Positions 127 through 20,885 of a stretch of DNA of 23,129 nucleotides are shown here, in pieces. How positions within the stretch are numbered: position 1 is the stretch's first letter; each line of letters starts with the position of its first letter. This DNA is from an uncultured Bacteroidales bacterium (GTDB lineage Bacteria > Bacteroidota > Bacteroidia > Bacteroidales > Paludibacteraceae). The notes beneath the pieces were generated by a model. It saw only the letters and a list, made by a program, of their open reading frames with translations. It was not told the origin of the DNA and searched no databases. Both the position numbers and the translations under genes were made by a program. The DNA is taken from positions 1 through 23,129 of the forward strand of contig CADCCH010000037.1 in NCBI GenBank assembly GCA_902799875.1, read 5' to 3'.

Positions 127-1758
127 ATGAAAAAAGGAACGAAAATCACATTGTGGGTCGTAGGATCGTTCGTGGCCCTGTGCGTGGTAGCGGTGATGTG
201 TGCTGATATCATCGCATCGTATGTCGTCCGCAGAGAAGTACGTAATGCATTTGCACAAATGCCGGAAGTAAAAGCCGAAGTGGGTGGTATCTTCCTCCAT
301 CTGCTGAGCGGTTCGGCTATCGTGAAGGACATTACGTTCTGCACGAACAACCTGTCGTTGGAAGATACGATCGGTCGGCAGGAACCGGGGCTGGCGCTGC
401 ATATTCCTACGATTGCCGTTTGGAACATCAAGTACAAAGAACTGCTGCGTCACAAGCATCTGGATTTTCAAAAACTCGCCATCGATGACCTCGAAGTACT
501 GCTCTATATGGACGAGCAGCATCCGGAGAGTCTGATGCCTTATATCCCGAAGGATACAACCCTCGAGAAAGCGCCTATGTGGCTGCGTCAGATCACGGCA
601 CGGCGTATCGATATCGACGACTTATCGGCACGCTTGATCAGTACGACCTCGCCGCTGATGGTCCATTCGGAGGATTTGTCGGTCGATGTACGGGATATCG
701 TATATTGTTTCGAGGACTCTACCCTGCACTACAACGACTCCGTTTATGACCTTTGTCTGGAAGCGCTGCATCTGGCGACGCCGGACGGTCTGATGGCGAT
801 CGAGGCCCATGAGTTGCAGACCCGCAACGCCGGTCCGCTGAGTCTGGGTTATACGCGTGTACAGAACATTGTAGATCCGCAGAAGATGGCCGACAAAGCC
901 CGTGAGCCGATCACGTGGATCGACATGGAGCTGAACGGTCTGAGTACCTCGGCGATCAATCCGATACGCAAGGCGCTGCAAGCCGATTACACACTGGACT
1001 CGCTCCATGCGGATGTACGCCGCATGCACGTTTGCCGCGATGAGCGTTATGCTCCCAAGCGCCCGTTTGAGACGCCGCAGGAGTTCATGATGAAGATACC
1101 GGTAGAGTTCACCGTTCGTCACGCTAATGCGTATGTACGCGCAATCGATATTTATTTCTTCAGCACGCTGGTTAACTGCGGCGAGATGCACCTCAAGAAA
1201 GCACACGGTCAGACGTCTAACATCACCAACCGCCCCGGTGCCGTTTGGAAAAACCGCATGTCTGCGCCCTTCGGAAAGGAAGGTCAGATGACAGCCCAAT
1301 TCAACATGCACATGAACCGTGCCTCCGAGTTCGAAGCCAAGATAGACGGCAAGCATATCGAGACGCACGACATCAACTCGTTCGTCCGTCCGCTGGTAGG
1401 TATCACCTGCGAGTGCCATATCGACCATTTAGATGCCGAATACAAGGGCGACAAGACCATCGCAAAGGGAGAGTTCTGCATGGAGTACCACGGTTTGAAG
1501 ATCCAGGTTCACAAAGAAGACAATATCCCCTATAAGATCGTGACCAAGAACGCCGACACCTTCACCACACTCGCCAACAGTCTTATCCCCAAGAGCAATC
1601 CGACGGCGGTCGATATCGCCCCGAGGAGGTACCAGGTCGCATGGAAACGGGACGAGTGGAAACCCTACCCGCTGTATGTATTCGGTCCTTGTATCGATGG
1701 TATCAAAGAGACCATGCTGCCGGGTCTGTACGTGCACAAGCAAGCCAAGTATAAATGA
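127..1758 (+). CDS. AsmA-like membrane-anchored protein (hypothetical)
   Basis: 543 residues from the ATG at 127, chosen because the promoter -7 element lies at 96-103 and a longer in-frame start at 73 would be upstream of transcription. One N-terminal membrane segment (about residues 6-29) follows a short basic stretch (MKKGTK). The rest is soluble and has the alternating beta-strand character of AsmA/DUF748-type periplasmic proteins, but I see no diagnostic motif, so the family call is an inference from architecture. Such proteins are usually linked to envelope or lipid-transport homeostasis. Its TGA stop overlaps the mtaB start (ATGA at 1755-1758), so the two are translationally coupled. 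An unrelated anchored beta-rich protein remains possible. Confidence 0.6.
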   Translation: MKKGTKITLWVVGSFVALCVVAVMCADIIASYVVRREVRNAFAQMPEVKAEVGGIFLHLLSGSAIVKDITFCTNNLSLEDTIGRQEPGLALHIPTIAVWNIKYKELLRHKHLDFQKLAIDDLEVLLYMDEQHPESLMPYIPKDTTLEKAPMWLRQITARRIDIDDLSARLISTTSPLMVHSEDLSVDVRDIVYCFEDSTLHYNDSVYDLCLEALHLATPDGLMAIEAHELQTRNAGPLSLGYTRVQNIVDPQKMADKAREPITWIDMELNGLSTSAINPIRKALQADYTLDSLHADVRRMHVCRDERYAPKRPFETPQEFMMKIPVEFTVRHANAYVRAIDIYFFSTLVNCGEMHLKKAHGQTSNITNRPGAVWKNRMSAPFGKEGQMTAQFNMHMNRASEFEAKIDGKHIETHDINSFVRPLVGITCECHIDHLDAEYKGDKTIAKGEFCMEYHGLKIQVHKEDNIPYKIVTKNADTFTTLANSLIPKSNPTAVDIAPRRYQVAWKRDEWKPYPLYVFGPCIDGIKETMLPGLYVHKQAKYK

Positions 1759-3059
1759 AAATAGCGTTTACCACCTTAGGTTGCAAGCTCAATTTTGCAG
1801 AGTCCAGCGCATTAGGCAAAGCCCTGATCGCACGCGGACATACGCGTGCTCAAAAAGGCGAAGAGGCGGATATCTGCATCATCAACACCTGCTCCGTGAC
1901 CGATGCTGCCGATCATAAAGACCGGCAGATGATTCATCGTATCCGGCGACAGAACCCGAATGCAATCCTGATCGTCACCGGCTGCTACGCCCAACTCAAA
2001 CCCGATGAAATCGCACAGATTGAGGGGGTTGATTTTGTGCTCGGGCAGAACGAGAAGTTCAATCTGGAGGCGTTTGTTGAGCAACTCGAGATCTCGAGAT
2101 CACGAGATCACGTGATCACGAAAGTGCAGACTTCTCCGATCCGTGAGATCGACGATTTTCACGGGGCGTACAGCAAAGATGACCGTACCCGCTGTTTTCT
2201 AAAAGTACAGGACGGTTGTAACTATTTCTGCTCCTATTGCACGATCCCCTTAGCCCGCGGCAAGAGTCGCAATCCGTCCATTCAGACGCTGGTTCAGCAG
2301 GCGCAGGAAGCCATCGACGGCGGGGCGAAAGAACTGATCTTATCGGGCGTGAACATCGGTGATTTCGGTAGGAGCACGAACGAACGCTTTATTGATCTGG
2401 TTCGTGCATTAGACGGTCTGAACGGCGATTATCGGGTACGTATCTCGAGCTGCGAACCGAATCTTTTATCCGATGAAATCATTGATTTTGTAGCTACCAG
2501 TGCGCATTTTGCGCCGCATTTTCATATTCCGCTGCAATCGGGCAGTAATACGGTGCTCAAGATCATGGGACGCCGTTACACGCGTGAGCTCTTTGCCGAG
2601 CGCGTGGCACATATCAAAGCCGTGATGCCCCATGCTTTCATCGGCGTGGACTGCATGGTCGGTGTACGCGGCGAGACAGCTGCCTGCTGGGCAGATTATA
2701 TCGATTTCATCGAACAATTGCCGGTTAGCCAGTTGCATGTATTCACCTACTCCGAACGCGCCAACACGCGAATGTTAGAGATGGACCTGGAGATTGTGCC
2801 GCAGAAAGAACGCGAACGCCGCAGCAAACAGTTGCACGCTATCTCGGCACAAAAAACCCTGACGTTCTATAAAGAACATCAGGGATATGAAGCAACCGTG
2901 CTCTGGGAGTCCGCCAAAAAAGACGGACAGATGTTCGGCTTTACGGAGAACTACATCAAAGTGAGCTGTCCGTACGACCGTTCGAAAGTGAACACGTTTG
3001 AGCGCATAAGCGTGCAGCATCCGGATTCGGCAGACATTCCAACCGATACACAGGACTGA
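1755..3059 (+). CDS. mtaB: tRNA (N6-threonylcarbamoyladenosine(37)-C2)-methylthiotransferase MtaB
   Basis: 434 residues. The UPF0004 domain carries Cys10, Cys46 (NTCS) and Cys77 (TGCY), which bind one 4Fe-4S cluster. The radical-SAM cluster motif C-x3-C-x2-C is at Cys155/159/162 (CNYFCSYC), and a TRAM-like C-terminal region follows. The enzyme converts t6A37 to ms2t6A37 in tRNAs decoding ANN codons, using SAM and a sulfur donor. The LGCKLN start and length fit MtaB rather than MiaB or RimO. The start overlaps the previous stop (ATGA). Two oddities: residues about 113-123, between the two Fe-S domains, are encoded by an octamer repeat array (2091-2122), and the last 104 bp overlap the convergent P-loop kinase gene on the other strand. 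Confidence 0.93.
   Translation: MKIAFTTLGCKLNFAESSALGKALIARGHTRAQKGEEADICIINTCSVTDAADHKDRQMIHRIRRQNPNAILIVTGCYAQLKPDEIAQIEGVDFVLGQNEKFNLEAFVEQLEISRSRDHVITKVQTSPIREIDDFHGAYSKDDRTRCFLKVQDGCNYFCSYCTIPLARGKSRNPSIQTLVQQAQEAIDGGAKELILSGVNIGDFGRSTNERFIDLVRALDGLNGDYRVRISSCEPNLLSDEIIDFVATSAHFAPHFHIPLQSGSNTVLKIMGRRYTRELFAERVAHIKAVMPHAFIGVDCMVGVRGETAACWADYIDFIEQLPVSQLHVFTYSERANTRMLEMDLEIVPQKERERRSKQLHAISAQKTLTFYKEHQGYEATVLWESAKKDGQMFGFTENYIKVSCPYDRSKVNTFERISVQHPDSADIPTDTQD
2091..2122 (+). repeat. Octamer tandem array inside mtaB (ATCnCGnR family)
   Basis: Four successive octamers (ATCTCGAG, ATCACGAG, ATCACGTG, ATCACGAA) with a further half unit CTCGAG just before. They encode ISRSRDHVITK in the linker between the UPF0004 and radical-SAM domains. 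The same unit family occurs in addB at 4801-4832 and is read in the same phase there. Confidence 0.8.
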
Positions 3060-3857: not shown

Positions 3858-6560
3858 TTAATAAACGTTTGGCTGCCGGCCGCATAGTTGGAAGAACGGA
3901 CAATAGGACGGACAGTCGCTTTCTTCACAAAGCGGAAAATCGGTGGCAGTCAGTACCTGCTGCATCTTCGTTTGCAGGGCTTGTATAAAGGGTTCTTGTA
4001 TCTTTCTATAATCGTGTACGGTCTCATCCGCCACATCGAGCGTGGTGACGATATCGGTCAACTTATGCCGGCAGAAATACAGATGCGGCTCAATCGGTAA
4101 GCCGGTCTTCTCGTGCATCATCGCCGCATGACAGTAAATGAGCGTCTGACGGACGTAGCCCTTCTCTTCGCTCTCCATGATATCGTCCCAGGAAGCCGAC
4201 ATTTTTTTAAGATGCGTAGTATCCGTGTACCCGCCGGTCTTATAATCGACGATCCGCAGGCGTTCCGTCCCCGGCGCACCGTATATATCGAGCCGATCGA
4301 TCTTACCACCGGTCTGAATCGTTCCGATACCCGGTACTTCCACCGGGAAATAGCGCTCCTGCTCCAGCAGATAAACTTGCAGTCCCACTTTGGCATCCTC
4401 CCGATCGCGCTCCAGGACATTGCGTACGTAACCCTTGATGATGACGTTCTCGGAGACGTGTTCGTCCGGATTGTACACTTTTTCTTCCTCTTCCTCCATC
4501 GCCTTGTACGCCGCCATGAGGGCTTCCTGCAGTTTGGACTCATCGGTACGGATCGCTTCGATTTCATCGGGCTTAATCCGGGTCGGATGCGTATTGTCAC
4601 AATGCAGGAAATGCGTATATATATACTCCATTGCGTGATGGACGAAGGAACCTAAGGTGGCGGACTCAAACTGCGCCCCTTCCTCTTGCTGCGGACGCAG
4701 ATGCTCGATATACTGGTAGTAGAACGACCGCGGGCAGGTGATAAAAGCATTGAGGGCTGATGGCGAGAGTTTACGGGCATTCGTCGAAAGATAAGATTCT
4801 TTCGTGATCACGAGATCTCGTAATGACGAGATGAGGTTCTCCTCCGTTAACTCCGTGCGGGTGACGTCAAACGCATCCGAGTAGAGAATCTGCATGATAA
4901 AACGCGACATGCCGCGACTGCCACCGAGCGTATCCGGCTGACCGTGCATGAGGGTCGTATGACCCGAACGACTGAGCAGACGGAAAAAGTTATAGGCGTA
5001 GATTGTTGCCTTTTCATCGGAAGTCTGCATGTGGTACGCCTTACGCAGGTAGAAGGGAATGAACGAACTGTCGGTCTGCCGTTGCGGCAGAATACCCTCG
5101 TCCACATTGAGTAACAACAACTTATCGAAATCGAGCAAACGGGTCTCCAATACACCCATCACCTGTATATCCGTCACGGGTTCACCGTGGAAAGGCATCG
5201 TAACGCTCTCCATCGTTCGCCGCATGAGAAGCCGCAGCAACTTAAGCGTAAACGGTATCTCTCCTAATCCATCGGTGATCAGCTTGCGCATCTGGTTCGC
5301 TATCTTATGAATCTGATACTCGGACTCCAGAATGAGCAATTCTTGCCAGGAAAGGGAGATTTTTTCTTCGGTATCCCGTGATTCCGGTATCTCGGTATCC
5401 TGAACAAAGACCGCTTCCACTAAATGGTCGATGAAATCGGGATAAATGATATCTTCCGCTTTGCCTCGTGCACGGTCATACAACCACGCGATCGTGCGGG
5501 CATAGACAGCCGTATTTCGCAAGGGAAAACCTTTGGTGATATTAATCGGTTCCGGTGCCTCTTGTCCGGGCAAGATGATGGGCGGTAAAGCATATATAAC
5601 CGGTTCCAACATCGTCTCGTCGCAGATAACGACACCTACTTTCTGATTTTTAGCCGTATAGTTGTCCTGCAACCACCGATGCACGTACTGCGCTTGTGCT
5701 TCTTTCGAAACGCAAGAAATAACGGTTACATCGCGTTTTTTTGTACCCTGTTGAGGGGGTAGCACGGAACCTAAAAGACCGCTGTTGAGTTGGGCAAAGG
5801 AGAAGGCTTTGGTGTTGGTTTCAAAATCCGCCACGTAATCCCAGTAGAAGAGTGCCTGACCGTTATCGCGCAACCGTTGCATCAACTCACGTTCGACAGG
5901 AAGCAGATAATTAAAGCCCACGAAGATGAAGGTACGTCCTTTGATTTTGGCTTGAATCGCCTCACTCTCCCACTCTTCGATCACCGCACGTTGCCGCAGT
6001 CCCGCGTAGCCCTTCTGCTCCGCTTTCATCTCTGCCCGAAGGGCCGTATAGAGTTCATATAACTGATGCCAGAGTACTTCGTACTGATTCTTGATAGAAT
6101 CCCGTTCACCGCTAACCGCTAACCGCTCACCGTTAATCAATCCTCTCAATCGCTCTTCGATCTCGGGGTCAATCTTGAGTTGCTCCAGTTCATGGGCCGC
6201 AATCGTATTCTCAAAGAAATTGGGTACTTCGGACCCCCAGCCGTAGAAGAGATCCAAAGGGATCATTGGAGATTGAAGATTGGAGATTGAAGATTTTTGA
6301 TATAATTTATACAACCGTACGATGGTGAAGAGCTCGTCTTCGGCATATAGGGGACTGAGAGAATCTTGCAATTGGGTAAGCGTCTGTACCGTCGGCGCCC
6401 AAACGACCGGTGCTTTCTGCTCTTTGAGCATTTGCATCAGTTCATTCTTGAGCACGATACCGGCACGATGCGAGGGCAGCACAAGGGTAGTGCGGCTCAA
6501 CTGCTTCCCATCGATCTGTATGAGGATGGAGCGTGCTACTTGTTGCAAGAAACTATCCAT
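3858..6560 (-). CDS. addB: AddB-type Fe-S nuclease subunit (PD-(D/E)XK)
   Basis: 900 residues. It is the partner of AddA in a RecBCD-like end-processing helicase-nuclease for double-strand-break repair. The C-terminal PD-(D/E)XK nuclease has GSFVHH, GGKIDRLD and VDYK (Asp772, Lys774). A likely 4Fe-4S cluster is framed by Cys609 (ITCPRSF) and C-terminal Cys883, Cys887 and Cys893, with an extra Cys878. The N-terminus has LVLPSHRAG where a Walker A would be, so the helicase half is probably inactive as an ATPase, as in other Bacteroidota homologues. The start ATG (6558-6560) overlaps the addA stop by 8 bp. Four short tandem arrays lie inside the gene (4801-4832, 5369-5400, 6105-6139, 6265-6299), apparently in variable linkers. 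Confidence 0.88.
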   Translation of the reverse strand: MDSFLQQVARSILIQIDGKQLSRTTLVLPSHRAGIVLKNELMQMLKEQKAPVVWAPTVQTLTQLQDSLSPLYAEDELFTIVRLYKLYQKSSISNLQSPMIPLDLFYGWGSEVPNFFENTIAAHELEQLKIDPEIEERLRGLINGERLAVSGERDSIKNQYEVLWHQLYELYTALRAEMKAEQKGYAGLRQRAVIEEWESEAIQAKIKGRTFIFVGFNYLLPVERELMQRLRDNGQALFYWDYVADFETNTKAFSFAQLNSGLLGSVLPPQQGTKKRDVTVISCVSKEAQAQYVHRWLQDNYTAKNQKVGVVICDETMLEPVIYALPPIILPGQEAPEPINITKGFPLRNTAVYARTIAWLYDRARGKAEDIIYPDFIDHLVEAVFVQDTEIPESRDTEEKISLSWQELLILESEYQIHKIANQMRKLITDGLGEIPFTLKLLRLLMRRTMESVTMPFHGEPVTDIQVMGVLETRLLDFDKLLLLNVDEGILPQRQTDSSFIPFYLRKAYHMQTSDEKATIYAYNFFRLLSRSGHTTLMHGQPDTLGGSRGMSRFIMQILYSDAFDVTRTELTEENLISSLRDLVITKESYLSTNARKLSPSALNAFITCPRSFYYQYIEHLRPQQEEGAQFESATLGSFVHHAMEYIYTHFLHCDNTHPTRIKPDEIEAIRTDESKLQEALMAAYKAMEEEEEKVYNPDEHVSENVIIKGYVRNVLERDREDAKVGLQVYLLEQERYFPVEVPGIGTIQTGGKIDRLDIYGAPGTERLRIVDYKTGGYTDTTHLKKMSASWDDIMESEEKGYVRQTLIYCHAAMMHEKTGLPIEPHLYFCRHKLTDIVTTLDVADETVHDYRKIQEPFIQALQTKMQQVLTATDFPLCEESDCPSYCPFFQLCGRQPNVY
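4801..4832 (-). repeat. Octamer tandem array inside addB (same family as in mtaB)
   Basis: Four octamers read on the + strand: TTCGTGAT, CACGAGAT, CTCGTAAT, GACGAGAT. They encode LRDLVITK on the coding strand, about 20 residues before the nuclease-domain cysteine Cys609. Both this array and the one in mtaB end their coding-strand reading in CGTGATCACGAAA. Confidence 0.75.
5369..5400 (-). repeat. Octamer tandem array inside addB (CGGTATCC family)
   Basis: Four octamers: CGGTATCC, CGTGATTC, CGGTATCT, CGGTATCC, followed by TGAACAA. They encode QDTEIPESRDTE near residues 387-398. The same order of units occurs in addA at 7092-7123. Confidence 0.85.
6105..6139 (-). repeat. Heptamer tandem array inside addB (CTAACCG family)
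   Basis: Five heptamers: TTCACCG, CTAACCG, CTAACCG, CTCACCG and the degenerate TTAATCA. They encode GERLAVSGERDS near residues 141-152. Related units lie in the nucleotidyltransferase gene (13460-13487 and 13761-13781). Confidence 0.8.
6265..6299 (-). repeat. Heptamer tandem array inside addB (ATTGRAG family)
   Basis: Five heptamers: ATTGGAG, ATTGAAG, ATTGGAG, ATTGAAG, ATTTTTG. They encode KSSISNLQSPM near residues 88-99. The same unit (GATTGAA) lies at the rluB/MMPL junction, and a variant (GATTGGC) lies after rpmF. Confidence 0.85.
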
Positions 6561-9534
6561 GTACCTGTCTCAATTTATTCTCCTGTGCAAACCATAAATA
6601 CCCACGCACGGGACCGTATCCCATCCGTCGGAGCGCCTCCATATATTCGCGTACTTGCGTGGCATAGTGATCATTCCAATGCCCGAACTTATAATCAAGT
6701 ACGATCGCTTCGCGCGTCTGCGGATTGATCATCACGCGATCCGGTCGCAGTTCGCGTTGGTCTATGTATATCGCCTCTTCGAGGCGCAGTTCCCATGGTG
6801 ATGTAAACCAATCCCGCATCTGAGGACTACCCTCCCAAGCGGATGCAATCAAAGTACGAATATCTTCCCGTTGGGCTGCATCCTTGATCTCACCGCGACT
6901 CTCAAAATCATCTAATACGGCATCCAGTTCATCGGCCTTGCGGATATGTGCAAAGATCTCATGACAGAGCGTACCCTCTTCCATCCGCGCCACACGGCGA
7001 TAGGCCTCCTCACCGTTCTCGGTGTACATCGCACCTTCCTGGGACTGCACGAAACGTACCTGGTCACTTGCGGACCAGAGTTCGGCGGAAACGGTATCCC
7101 GTGATCCCTGTATCCCGGTATCCCGAACAATAACCTGTCCTTCTTCGTACTCGTCTCCGTAGCAATCCATGAGGTATTTGCCGACATGGTTGCATACACC
7201 GCGTTTGCCGTCCTTATTCTCCGAATAAGCGGTAGTGACAAAGAGATTGTCCTCCGCACGGGTCAACGCCACATAGAGCATATTGAGATTGTCCACCCGC
7301 ATGTCCGTTTGTTCTTGGATATAGGCCTCCTGATAGTCGGATGCTTCCATCTCCGCCCCGTACTGTACCGGCACAAAATCACCGGTTTCATCGACTTTTT
7401 CCGGCACTTGACACCACACTTTGGGTTTATGTCTGCCGTCCTCGCGCTCCCACATGCAGAAGGGCACAAAGAGCGTCTGGGCCTGCAGACCCTTGCTGGC
7501 ATGCACGGTCATGATCCGGATGGCATTGGAAGCGGTAACCGGTATCGGCTTAGCGTGCAAGGTTTCCTGCCAGTAGATGAGGAACTTATCCACATCGCTT
7601 CCATACGCACCCACATATTCGCGGGTACGATCTAATAGCGCATTGAGATACGCCGTCTCCGTACCTTGGTACTGTCCGTTTGCATCGGTCAGCAGGATAC
7701 GCACCAACTCACACACGGCCTCATATAAGGGTGTTTGAGTGGTAACGGCGGCTTGTATCGGTTCGATGAAATCGGTCGATTTGACCATCTCCATAAAGCG
7801 CTTGGCCACCACATCTTTCTGGAAAACCCACCGCAAGGCCGCGATGATGAGCTGTACATCCTGCGAGGCCTCCAACATAAAACTGTCTGCACTGACGATG
7901 GGCAAGGAGGTCATGGAGCAGATGAGATTGGCTTCTTTCTTCTCCCTTACGAGAATCATGATCTGAGCGGGTTTCACCCCTTGATGGAGCAGTTCTTCGA
8001 TCTGTTCGAACATATGCTGCGCCAAGTCCTCTTTGGTAGCATTCGGAAAAGCCTGAAAACGGACGTAGCCGCCTTTTTTCTTATCGGACTGATAGAAACG
8101 GTCGATTTGATCGGGTGAAAAACCCTCGGAGTAGATGCGTTCAATTAACTCATCCCCGCTCCGCCGGATGATATCGTCCATGAGGGTAAGGTTAAACTTC
8201 ACCACCTGTTCCGAACTACGGAAATTGCGGGTGAGGGACGTGAATCGTTCGTTGGTCTGCGGACCGTAGTTCAGTTCATCCATGATATGCCAGTCACCGT
8301 TTCGCCAACGGTAGATGGACTGTTTGATATCGCCTACGATGAGCAGCGTGTTGCCTGCTCCGGCCAGCACGTCGCGCAGCAGTTGTTCGATGACCGACCA
8401 TTGGAGTTGACTCGTATCCTGGAACTCATCCATGAGCACATGCTTGTACCGGATACCGGCTTTCTCGAGAATGAAATCCGCATCTCCGGTACGCAGGGCT
8501 TTGGTGAGCGTACTCGCCGTACGGGCCAGTAGCGCGCAGTTAGCCTCCGAAAGATTGCGTTGAATCAGCGCCTGCAGTGAGGACATCAGCTCCATATCGC
8601 GACTGAAACGGATGGTTAGAAAGAGGGTGTTGTAGTCGTTACGCAGTTCGTCCGCCAAGGCAGTCGCCTGCTTGAGTTCCGGGCGCTTGCAGGTATCCGA
8701 CGCCCCACGAAAACGATCCTTTGCAGATACTTTCTCCGGCGCTTCGACCGATTCTTTGAGTCGCCGGTACGCCGCACTCTCATTGCGATTATAGTCGGTG
8801 AAATCGATGGATTCTAACAATTGCTTCAATTCCTTCACCCGTTGATCGTTCTGCCATTGTGCCTCGATGCGTGCCCGTCTGCGCGCAATCGAATCGGCAT
8901 CAAAGAGGATGCGTTCGTCGGCATCGAGCATCTGGACGGACTCGTTATACAGTTCCTTGGCTAAGGTGACGAGGCTCTCCCGTACGTCCCAGGCGCTTTC
9001 CTGGTCGAGTTTGAGTTGCATATAGTCCTCCAGGATACGCTTGTCTGCGTCCGTCAGATCGGTCGTCAGCAGTTGATCCACGGCGGTACGAATAACCGGA
9101 TCGATGTCCAGTTCGGTATTGAGTCCGGCACTAGTGTGCATCATTCCTGCCAGACCGTTAAGCAGCATCAGAAGGAAGGAGTCGATGGTCTGAACCTGCA
9201 CGTTATCGAAATCGAGCAGCATGCGTTGGAAACACTCTCCGGCACGGCGGCGAAGCAGGGTCTCATCGGCCTTCGCATCGCGTACCATAAAGCAACGGGC
9301 ATAGTTCAGAAAATCATCCGCCCCCCCCTGCGCTATCTCGTGCAGAAAATGCAGGATACGTTCACTCATCTCCGCCGTTGCTTTGTTGGTAAACGTGATG
9401 GCGAGGATCGAGCGATAGTCCTCACCCGACAGCAAAAGGCCTACGTAATACGCGGCCAAGGTGTACGTTTTACCCGTTCCCGCCGATGCCTTACAGATAG
9501 TCACCGGCTGCTGTATGTGAAGCAACGATGTCAT
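6553..9534 (-). CDS. addA: AddA-type UvrD/Rep helicase-nuclease subunit
   Basis: 993 residues from the ATG at 9534. An in-frame start at 9573 is rejected because it lies upstream of the promoter. Superfamily 1 motifs appear in order: Walker A ASAGTGKT (16-23), DEFQDTS (about 369-375), IKQSIYRWRNGD, LTRNFRSS, TVHASKGLQ and YVALTRAEDNLFV. A C-terminal nuclease follows with CHEIF, RPDRV and LDYKFG. It would unwind and degrade broken DNA ends with AddB, producing a 3' tail for RecA. The stop overlaps the addB start by 8 bp, so the two are coupled. Oddities: a G8 run in the coding strand (9321-9328, about codon 70) and an octamer array (7092-7123) in the linker between helicase motif VI and the nuclease domain. 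Confidence 0.92.
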   Translation of the reverse strand: MTSLLHIQQPVTICKASAGTGKTYTLAAYYVGLLLSGEDYRSILAITFTNKATAEMSERILHFLHEIAQGGADDFLNYARCFMVRDAKADETLLRRRAGECFQRMLLDFDNVQVQTIDSFLLMLLNGLAGMMHTSAGLNTELDIDPVIRTAVDQLLTTDLTDADKRILEDYMQLKLDQESAWDVRESLVTLAKELYNESVQMLDADERILFDADSIARRRARIEAQWQNDQRVKELKQLLESIDFTDYNRNESAAYRRLKESVEAPEKVSAKDRFRGASDTCKRPELKQATALADELRNDYNTLFLTIRFSRDMELMSSLQALIQRNLSEANCALLARTASTLTKALRTGDADFILEKAGIRYKHVLMDEFQDTSQLQWSVIEQLLRDVLAGAGNTLLIVGDIKQSIYRWRNGDWHIMDELNYGPQTNERFTSLTRNFRSSEQVVKFNLTLMDDIIRRSGDELIERIYSEGFSPDQIDRFYQSDKKKGGYVRFQAFPNATKEDLAQHMFEQIEELLHQGVKPAQIMILVREKKEANLICSMTSLPIVSADSFMLEASQDVQLIIAALRWVFQKDVVAKRFMEMVKSTDFIEPIQAAVTTQTPLYEAVCELVRILLTDANGQYQGTETAYLNALLDRTREYVGAYGSDVDKFLIYWQETLHAKPIPVTASNAIRIMTVHASKGLQAQTLFVPFCMWEREDGRHKPKVWCQVPEKVDETGDFVPVQYGAEMEASDYQEAYIQEQTDMRVDNLNMLYVALTRAEDNLFVTTAYSENKDGKRGVCNHVGKYLMDCYGDEYEEGQVIVRDTGIQGSRDTVSAELWSASDQVRFVQSQEGAMYTENGEEAYRRVARMEEGTLCHEIFAHIRKADELDAVLDDFESRGEIKDAAQREDIRTLIASAWEGSPQMRDWFTSPWELRLEEAIYIDQRELRPDRVMINPQTREAIVLDYKFGHWNDHYATQVREYMEALRRMGYGPVRGYLWFAQENKLRQVHG
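7092..7123 (-). repeat. Octamer tandem array inside addA (CGGTATCC family)
   Basis: Four octamers: CGGTATCC, CGTGATCC, CTGTATCC, CGGTATCC, followed by CGAACAA. They match the addB array at 5369-5400 unit by unit. On the coding strand they give VRDTGIQGSRDT, against VQDTEIPESRDT in addB, so the phase is the same. Confidence 0.88.
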
Positions 9535-9542
9535 TTTGGGTG

Positions 9543-9574
9543 CAAAGGTACAACTTTTTTTTGAGATACACAAA
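9543..9574 (-). promoter_or_regulatory. Promoter of addA-addB-kinase operon
   Basis: On the - strand, TTTG (9574-9571), a 20-nt spacer and TACCTTTG (9550-9543) followed by CAC. The expected transcription start is within a few bases of the ATG at 9534, so addA should be nearly leaderless. Confidence 0.85.
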
Positions 9575-20145: not shown

Positions 20146-20208
20146 AAGGTGAAAAGGCAAAAGGGGTATAACCACCTTTCACCTTTAACCTTTCGCCAAT
20201 CGCCAATC
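20146..20208 (-). repeat. Nine-unit heptamer array with internal inverted repeat between rpmF and rluB
   Basis: Nine consecutive 7-bp units fill 20146-20208: AAGGTGA, AAAGGCA and AAAGGGG, a spacer unit, ACCTTTC/ACCTTTA/ACCTTTC, then GCCAATC twice. The array abuts the rpmF stop codon. The arms 20146-20157 and 20175-20185 are complementary except for one bulged base, giving an about 11-bp hairpin in the transcript with a 17-nt loop. It is followed by an AU-rich stretch but no clean U-run, so it could attenuate or process the message between rpmF and rluB. Confidence 0.8.
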
Positions 20209-20395: not shown

Positions 20396-20437
20396 ATTTA
20401 CAATTTTAAGATTTCAAATTTATAATTTACAAATTAT
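20396..20437 (-). repeat. AT-rich degenerate heptamer series at the yceD/rpmF junction
   Basis: Six 7-bp steps (ATTTACA, ATTTTAA, GATTTCA, AATTTAT, AATTTAC, AAATTAT) span the end of yceD and the gap to rpmF. The units are similar but low in complexity, so the periodicity may be partly compositional. Confidence 0.4.
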
Positions 20438-20885
20438 CAATCTCGGGATCCGAATCGTCACAAAGGTGATCATGGAGGAGAAGTTCCATTTGCTTATTGC
20501 ACTCACCTGCTTGGTGACAGTGAACGATCGGAATATTGATACTTACTATTTCATATGCTAACCACGATAAATCGATTTCATCATTTAGCGAAGCGTCACC
20601 ATTTAGCGAAGCGTCACCATTATCGAATTCATCATTAGCATCTATTTCAAGGGGCATCGGGTCGAGGCACCTATCACACACGACAAAGACAGTTCCTCGA
20701 ACCGCTATATTGAGCTGATAGTCCTCCTCCCGGAGATTAAGCGTTGCTTTGCCTTCCACTTGTCCGCCTAAGATTTCCGTTTTCTCCAAGCTCTTGAAGA
20801 ACGCGTCATCCAGCGTAATATCAAACTCATGACGGCCTACAGGCAGGCGTTTTAAGTCAATGATATAGTGGTCTTTTTCGCTCAT
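20427..20885 (-). CDS. yceD: YceD/DUF177 family protein, putative 23S rRNA accumulation factor
   Basis: 152 residues. Family features are the CDRCL motif in the middle and the later HCHQAGEC-type segment, plus an acidic C-terminus. YceD is linked to 23S rRNA or 50S biogenesis and is commonly encoded directly before rpmF, as here. The ATG at 20885 lies about 10-15 nt after the predicted transcription start, so the leader is short. An exact 18-bp tandem duplication (20583-20618) adds NGDASL twice in an acidic linker near residues 89-101. The function in this phylum is inferred from homology. Confidence 0.87.
   Translation of the reverse strand: MSEKDHYIIDLKRLPVGRHEFDITLDDAFFKSLEKTEILGGQVEGKATLNLREEDYQLNIAVRGTVFVVCDRCLDPMPLEIDANDEFDNGDASLNGDASLNDEIDLSWLAYEIVSINIPIVHCHQAGECNKQMELLLHDHLCDDSDPEIDNL
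20583..20618 (-). repeat. Perfect 18-bp tandem duplication inside yceD
   Basis: ATTTAGCGAAGCGTCACC occurs twice without a gap. It keeps the frame and encodes NGDASL twice. Identity of the copies suggests a recent duplication. Confidence 0.95.

What the first reader, a model, noticed from the sequence alone, without database searches (positions are those of the whole stretch)
5369..7123. Same four-unit octamer array in addA and addB, read in the same phase
addB 5369-5400 and addA 7092-7123 have the same order of 8-bp units (CGGTATCC, CGTGATYC, CNGTATCY, CGGTATCC, then YGAACAA). They yield similar peptides, QDTEIPESRDT and VRDTGIQGSRDT, although the two genes are not alike there. The addA copy lies between helicase motif VI and the nuclease domain. 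This looks like a mobile or copied mini-array tolerated in linkers. As far as I know this is an undescribed element type in Bacteroidota; Rickettsia palindromic elements are the closest analogy.
Basis: partly seen in the sequence, partly recalled or inferred. Interest (0 to 1): 0.8.

Follow-up and report, generated by a model that had tools for sequence, protein, structure and literature searches.

The report
Swappable short-repeat arrays in protein linkers
The matching repeats in two DNA-repair genes belong to a large set of tiny repeat cassettes that a group of gut and rumen bacteria keeps gaining, swapping and losing in the flexible linkers of its proteins and between its genes.

Summary
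The repeat pair is real (35 of 39 bases) and is no isolated oddity. Each copy is a 34-bp cassette, CGNNATNN x4 + CG. The window holds four: mtaB 2087, addB 4803, addB 5369, addA 7092. Simulated windows average 0.04 hits. The cassette belongs to a wider class of degenerate arrays, mostly period 7, then 8 and 11, typically 30-38 bp. Two relatives have about one heptamer array per 4 kb, and none in simulated sequence. The arrays fill interdomain linkers and intergenic DNA.

At one linker, related species carry different words and even periods. Between close relatives I saw a gain already heterogeneous at birth, a 21-nt shortening and replacements. Dominant words are species-specific: GGCGAAN has 56 hits in one genome, 0-5 in each of 26 others.

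Direct addA-addB copying is weakly supported (about 1% of other pairs match as well). At the one site tested without ascertainment the skeleton is not conserved. A shared reverse transcriptase or lost MutS does not explain it. The mechanism is unknown; repair-templated spreading of short words is my best guess. Closest precedents: Xanthomonas (GGGANTN)n and Beggiatoaceae TAACTGA heptamers.

The parts
7092..7125 (.). octamer cassette (CGNNATNN x4 + CG) in addA, interdomain linker; the reported array
   Evidence: (score 6.5, 9 dinucleotide positions)
5369..5402 (.). octamer cassette in addB, upstream of the nuclease domain; the reported array (last CG is TG)
   Evidence: (8 dinucleotides, 5369-5398)
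4803..4832 (.). further octamer cassette in addB, just before the nuclease domain
   Evidence: 8 dinucleotides; not seen by the period score
2087..2120 (.). further octamer cassette in mtaB, between the UPF0004 and Radical_SAM domains (CGAGATCA type)
   Evidence: (9 of 9 dinucleotides)
6102..6132 (.). heptamer array in addB (ACCGCTA words; ARCGG cores on the coding strand)
6265..6295 (.). heptamer array in addB (ATTGRAG x4)
20173..20208 (.). intergenic heptamer array (CACCTTT then TCGCCAA words)
6553..9573 (-). addA-like RecB-family helicase-nuclease gene
   Evidence: NCBIfam matches below their cut-offs
3858..6560 (-). addB-like PD-(D/E)XK nuclease gene
   Evidence: NCBIfam matches below their cut-offs
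1755..3059 (+). mtaB (tRNA methylthiotransferase)
   Evidence: TIGR01579 above cut-off

Best explanation
SHOWN: the two arrays are members of a class of short degenerate tandem cassettes spread over related genomes, mostly period 7, then 8 and 11, usually 4-5 units. They sit in interdomain linkers and intergenic DNA. Genomes differ in their stock of words, and at a given linker arrays are shortened, decay or differ in word and period between relatives, with one polarised gain. INFERRED: they are nearly neutral passengers. New arrays are written when a break or stalled fork in tolerant DNA is repaired by synthesis that primes on short repeated words and recopies a few units from other arrays of the genome. 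Register slips scramble unit order and let mismatched units persist. Selection then keeps only products that leave the reading frame open. In AddA, AddB and MtaB the result is an interchangeable flexible linker with no sequence-specific role.
For: Period 7 far above zero-yield Markov controls, 8 and 11 next. Of seven runs of three or more GG-type octamers in DNA not centred on octamer hits, six have exactly four units, two of them the window's own. Length about 4.5 units in both coding (median 32) and intergenic DNA (31) for heptamers, so not a frame effect. Dominant words differ by species: GGCGAAN 56 overlapping hits at 37 places (my count of the listing) in G006 against 0-5 in each of 26 others; GGCTGAN 51 in G026, 17 in G011, 0-11 in each of the other 25. 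Word recurrence exceeds letter-shuffled words. One polarised gain (L013:21367) has unequal units at once, nets +18 nt, and two relatives lack any array there. One linker has a heptamer, an octamer and no array in three relatives (L016/L015/L013). Linker occupancy by different words. AddA at 94% identity already has another linker of equal length (peptide only).
Against: Heptamer unit order is hardly shared between arrays of one genome (69 against 55-62 permuted pairs at one threshold, 29 against 13-24 at another); octamers show more (33 against 19-29, 14 against 5-9), partly from a duplicated segment. So plain copying of whole arrays is not the rule. Overwriting by an unrelated word has no homology to start from. 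Only one gain was polarised, and its word has only 4 hits in that genome (G013), so a local origin is not excluded. No enzyme is identified.
Confidence: 0.43

Rival explanations
1. Ordinary replication slippage: the arrays are long simple sequence repeats that expand in place from chance duplications, 7-8 nt being the favoured slippage step, and later mutate.
For: Heptanucleotides are the commonest long repeats in many bacteria and polymerase contact length was proposed as the cause (Mrazek 2007 as quoted in PMC4679880). A 21-nt change at the mtaB site between L014 and L018 is three units. One array drifts from heptamer to octamer words along its length (L018, opposite L014:2665). Other periods (9, 10, 12, 15, 18) occur at low counts.
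Against: Words recur genome-wide and differ by species; slippage from random seeds would not do this. Octamer runs peak at four units rather than falling off; detection limits blur this for heptamers. The one polarised gain is already heterogeneous. Loss of MutS does not explain it: MutS_I in 26 of 27 genomes.
Confidence: 0.27
2. A dedicated writer, for example a template-bearing polymerase or reverse transcriptase, synthesises about four degenerate units of a species-specific template and inserts them.
For: Near-fixed unit number of octamers, few common periods, position-specific degeneracy with CG and AT at 93-98% over skeleton-ascertained sites, species-specific words at many loci, heterogeneity at birth.
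Against: RVT_1 found in only 9 of 27 family genomes and in none of G006, G007, G008, which are rich in arrays (draft genomes, one model). No clean target duplication seen; the gain overwrites local sequence.
Confidence: 0.12
3. The cassettes are binding sites for a protein that contacts palindromic CG and AT every 4 bp, and the skeleton is kept by selection.
For: CG/AT nearly invariant over 88 sites; octamers recur at the same site in distant species, including DNA just downstream of promoter-like sequence.
Against: The 88 sites were found by their skeleton. At an orthologous site reached by protein alone, skeleton third-codon positions differ about as much as flanks (0.515 against 0.544 over 18 equal-length genomes of 24), and 7 of the 18 keep 5 or fewer of 9 dinucleotides. 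Period-7 arrays cannot carry the 4-bp spacing.
Confidence: 0.1
4. The peptides are selected and the DNA similarity is a by-product.
For: The U32-peptidase site keeps SRYT.IP.YR in several species.
Against: All three frames and untranslated DNA are used; periods 7, 8 and 11 are not multiples of three; relatives with another array have another peptide.
Confidence: 0.03

Closest known systems
Xanthomonas (GGGANTN)n and Nostoc GGGGA(C/T)T heptamer arrays (PMC4692102)
   Same: Dispersed heptamer arrays with fixed and variable unit positions; heterogeneous units; four units commonest; length and sequence vary between close species (passages and section 10 read)
   Different: One G-rich word studied per group, 89-93% intergenic in the two xanthomonads, read as G-quadruplexes, mostly between the same genes; here many words, periods 8 and 11 too, heptamers mostly coding, not G-rich
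TAACTGA direct repeats of Beggiatoaceae, Cyanobacteria and five Bacteroidetes incl. Paludibacter (PMC4679880)
   Same: Heptamer arrays, 2-6 copies in the main genome, patchy across phyla, no mechanism known (abstract and passages read)
   Different: Single word, mostly upstream of start codons, related heptamers rarely repeated, up to 43 copies in some genomes
Long simple sequence repeats with units of 1-11 nt (Mrazek 2007; paper not held; quoted in PMC4679880)
   Same: Heptanucleotide excess
   Different: Defined by length beyond chance; here degenerate units, near-fixed unit number of octamers, shared vocabulary, differing words at constant sites
Rickettsia palindromic elements
   Same: In-frame insertion tolerated in protein-coding genes (recalled; PMC2635572 passages only name the domain)
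   Different: Longer hairpin-forming elements (recalled); here 33-34 bp direct-repeat arrays whose variable positions avoid pairing (z -6.1)

Membership tests
Simple sequence repeats by slippage (LSSR) | Tandem units of 1-11 nt beyond chance | tested here: met
   Periods 7, 8, 11 present, simulations 0.0 for these (0.0-0.2)
Simple sequence repeats by slippage (LSSR) | Words independent between loci, as expected if each array grows from its own seed | tested here: not met
   Words recur genome-wide, species-specific
Simple sequence repeats by slippage (LSSR) | Unit number falls off smoothly | tested here: inconclusive
   Octamers peak at four (small numbers); heptamer peak partly shaped by detection
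Xanthomonas/Nostoc G4 heptamer arrays | Four or more G-tracts able to form G-quadruplexes | tested here: not met
   Words such as CCAATCN, AAAGGTG, CGAGATCA lack four G-tracts of three or more; read from sequence, no folding assay
Xanthomonas/Nostoc G4 heptamer arrays | Degenerate units, about four per array, dispersed | tested here: met
Rickettsia palindromic elements | In-frame insertion in unrelated genes | tested here: met
Rickettsia palindromic elements | Self-complementary stem-loop sequence | tested here: not met
   Skeleton symmetric, but variable positions complementary less often than shuffled (261 against 317 of 640)
RT-generated repeats (DGR/retron/telomerase-like) | Reverse transcriptase in the array-bearing genomes | tested here: not met
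   RVT_1 in 9 of 27 genomes, none in G006, G007, G008 (drafts, one model)
RT-generated repeats (DGR/retron/telomerase-like) | Template RNA carrying the word | not tested
   No template search was made

The most novel reading that the evidence does not exclude
A dedicated, still unknown DNA-writing activity in this bacterial family synthesises about four copies of a species-specific degenerate 7-, 8- or 11-nt word and overwrites tolerant DNA with them. It continually re-invents protein linkers while keeping them in frame, and its template (the 'word') turns over between species.
Probability: 0.15. Interest if true: 0.93.

Novelty: new variant of a known kind. Interest (0 to 1): 0.7.

Why it matters
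It gives an observable, fast-moving source of protein linkers: by extrapolation each genome has several hundred loci, and conserved flanks make the origin of short non-triplet repeats directly testable. It also warns that linker peptides such as RDTGIPESRDTE or SNLQSPISNLQSP in these genomes come from DNA-level arrays rather than protein motifs. It further suggests that the four-unit mode read as G-quadruplex selection in Xanthomonas may be more general, because it appears here for words without G-tracts.

Tried and rejected
Hairpin or cruciform function: rejected, variable positions avoid complementarity. Skeleton under selection: an ascertained set suggested it; the unascertained U32 site did not. 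Whole-array copying: small excess for heptamers, moderate for octamers. Reverse transcriptase. Mismatch-repair loss. A word grammar reaches held-out words only modestly (9, 18 and 4 of 500 shuffles at or above for 7-, 8- and 11-mers) and does not pick out heptamers of other phyla. Octamers elsewhere in the order: 11 of 295 genomes match, only G006 with more than one hit. The spaced pattern matched 27 of 27 genomes (7-35 places per strand against 1-5 in the reversed control), but its listing was truncated and mixed with short palindromes and unrelated sequence, so it was not used. Plasmid search: no match.

Paper searches. From the listings, none is a paper on this octamer or on array swapping in linkers; the library is open-licence papers only.

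Full report
OBSERVATION. They are the only direct-repeat family of 20 nt or more in 4700-7300, and both are read in codon frame 0. Written by skeleton they are CGNNATNN repeated four times and closed by CG, most often after T and before A (0.77 at the flanking base). Over 88 sites collected from fetched sequence the CG and AT dinucleotides stand at 93-98% while the bases between vary; these sites were found by a skeleton match, and shuffled sequence gave none. The window has four such cassettes, at 2087, 4803, 5369 and 7092; 300 Markov-3 windows average 0.037 hits.

SETTING. The genome is not held. AddA-like proteins at 53-76% identity come from 27 records titled Bacteroidales, Bacteroidia or Paludibacteraceae. 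Pfam places the addA array between UvrD_C_2 (757-779) and a weak nuclease match (861-998), and the mtaB array between UPF0004 and Radical_SAM. Both addB octamer arrays lie upstream of the nuclease domain, which starts at residue 597.

A CLASS OF ARRAYS. In the window plus 27 loci (537,770 bases) strict arrays number 78 at period 7, 11 at 8 and 10 at 11, with multiples 14, 16, 21 and 22 (41, 9, 22, 7). Periods 9, 15 and 18 give 5, 5 and 9, and 4-6, 10 and 13 none. Simulated sequence gives 0.0 at every period. In contiguous stretches of two relatives, period 7 gives 59 arrays in 220 kb and 33 in 140 kb, with small numbers at 9, 10 and 12 as well. Lengths peak near 4.5 units for 7- and 8-mers. 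Heptamers have the same median in coding (32 bp, n=63) and intergenic DNA (31 bp, n=22), so frame selection does not set it; five coding octamer hits are shorter, median 20. Read by eye, a common heptamer form is five 5-nt cores with four 2-nt spacers, 33 bp. Runs of the GG-type octamer in 897,770 bases not centred on octamer hits: six of four units (two of them the window's own), one of three, none longer, 38 of two; shuffled sequence gives 13 of two and one of three. The two contigs in that set were picked because one search listed octamer hits on them, so the set is not wholly unbiased. In one 220-kb stretch, heptamers lie in coding DNA (38), intergenic (15) or at gene edges (6), while 10 of 12 octamer and 9 of 11 undecamer arrays are intergenic by a crude ORF caller.

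THE SAME LINKER, OTHER WORDS. At the addA linker relatives carry AAAGGTG, AAATCAC, AGCCAAC or CCCGTAA arrays; at addB and mtaB likewise. An automatic period test with codon-shuffled expectation of at most 0.25 finds arrays in 6 of 28 sequences (addA), 10, 2, 5 and 5 of 27 (four addB linkers; five of the ten have period 9 or 12), 16 of 27 rows = 14 of 24 genomes (U32 peptidase) and 21 of 30 rows = 18 of 26 genomes (RimO, four of them with period 6, 9 or 10). It misses the window's own two addB octamer arrays. At the U32 site CGNNATNN-type octamers are present in many genomes, heptamers in G001 and G026, and another octamer word in G010. G012 and G011 carry sequence unlike either that stays below threshold. 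At RimO two octamer types share the same CG/AT phase in different species, read by eye.

TEMPO. Between L014 and L018 (96.6% identical) some arrays are unchanged, one differs by 21 nt, and one shares its start and then runs on as heptamers in one genome and octamers in the other. With relatives as outgroups, the array at L013:21367 (period-7 score 13.5, 0 of 200 shuffles) is a gain of 18 nt with unequal units; L016 and L015 have none there. At L013:19915 strong heptamers stand where L015 has a period-8 array (3 of 200 shuffles) and L016 a weaker one (15 of 200). At L016:19519 a heptamer array, an octamer array (L015) and no array (L013) share one linker. Among proteins closest to the window's own, P0001-P0004 (95-97%) keep RDTGI.GSRD, whereas P0005 (94%) has a different linker of equal length. 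For AddB, P0121 and P0122 (95, 91%) keep the peptide and P0123-P0129 (88-89%) do not (peptides only).

VOCABULARY. Heptamer words repeat beyond letter-shuffled expectation: 24 identical pairs against 2.1 in G006, and 105 against 15.4 over the 28 sequences. GGCGAAN gives 56 overlapping hits at 37 places in G006 and 0-5 hits in each of 26 others, with a reversed control of at most 5. GGCTGAN gives 51 in G026, 17 in G011 and 0-11 in each of the other 25, control 0. Yet heptamer unit order is hardly shared between arrays; octamers share it more (14 against 5-9 permuted pairs at the highest threshold), partly through a duplicated segment. So most arrays look like fresh draws from a degenerate word. 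The addA-addB likeness (14 of 16 variable positions) is reached by about 1% of other pairs: 5 of 512 within and 23 of 3252 between genomes.

WHAT IT IS NOT. Not a hairpin element. Not kept by detectable selection at the one unascertained site tested: skeleton third positions 0.515 against flanks 0.544 over 18 equal-length genomes, six of other length set aside; the lower figures and of the >=6/9 subset come from ascertained sets. Not tied to RVT_1 (9 of 27 genomes) nor to loss of MutS (present in 26 of 27). The GG-type octamer looks confined to this lineage. A heptamer word (GNTGAAN) is patchy over the order, 66 of 295 genomes; reversed controls are also high in several genomes, some of them without the forward word.

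MECHANISM. Shown: dispersed, degenerate, differing fast between relatives, tolerated in frame. Inferred: repair synthesis recopying short words from other arrays, then slips and decay. Slippage alone and a dedicated writer remain open.

KNOWN WORK. Heptamer arrays are known in Xanthomonas and Nostoc (PMC4692102, passages and section 10) and as TAACTGA in Beggiatoaceae, Cyanobacteria and five Bacteroidetes (PMC4679880, abstract and passages). The four-unit mode and heterogeneous units were seen in Xanthomonas and discussed as G-quadruplexes; here they appear for words without G-tracts. I found no account of species-specific vocabularies or of swapping at fixed linkers.

Noticed in passing
window about 6225-6240 (addB): The window's AddB lacks 16 residues (RQMLADFTN.DAS..A region) present in all 30 of the relatives aligned there; in-frame deletion or assembly loss.
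   Followed up: no
L052 and L047, both around 1500: An octamer cassette with near-identical flanks in G007 and G010, whose AddA proteins are 66% and 61% identical to the window's (distance to each other not measured): recent exchange or bin contamination.
   Followed up: no
addB linker at window 6265, in L002 and L007: Two species share an unusual stretch (CATACGGCGT.AGCAGATCG..AGAA) inside a CTTTCAA heptamer array at the same linker.
   Followed up: no
L126, L129, L134 (U32 linker); L156, L162, L172 (RimO linker): Another filler type at the same linkers: CTCCCT...AGGGAG-like inverted repeats, by eye.
   Followed up: no
L009 21495, L030 1500, L077 14064, L080 5000: Octamer cassettes lie just downstream of sigma54-like TTGGCACGN3TTTG sequence (promoter type recalled).
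   Followed up: no
L002 18012, L011 9789, L025 18063, L065 about 15637: The same 11-nt word (ACCTACTAATC) forms arrays in four species.
   Followed up: no
L012, L021, L022 addB linker: Period-9 repeats (CCGGANANT-like) at the addB linker, a multiple of three and so a possible true protein-level repeat.
   Followed up: partly
window 20578-20621: An 18-bp repeat (2.4 copies) inside the ORF 20427-20885, reading NGDASL.
   Followed up: no
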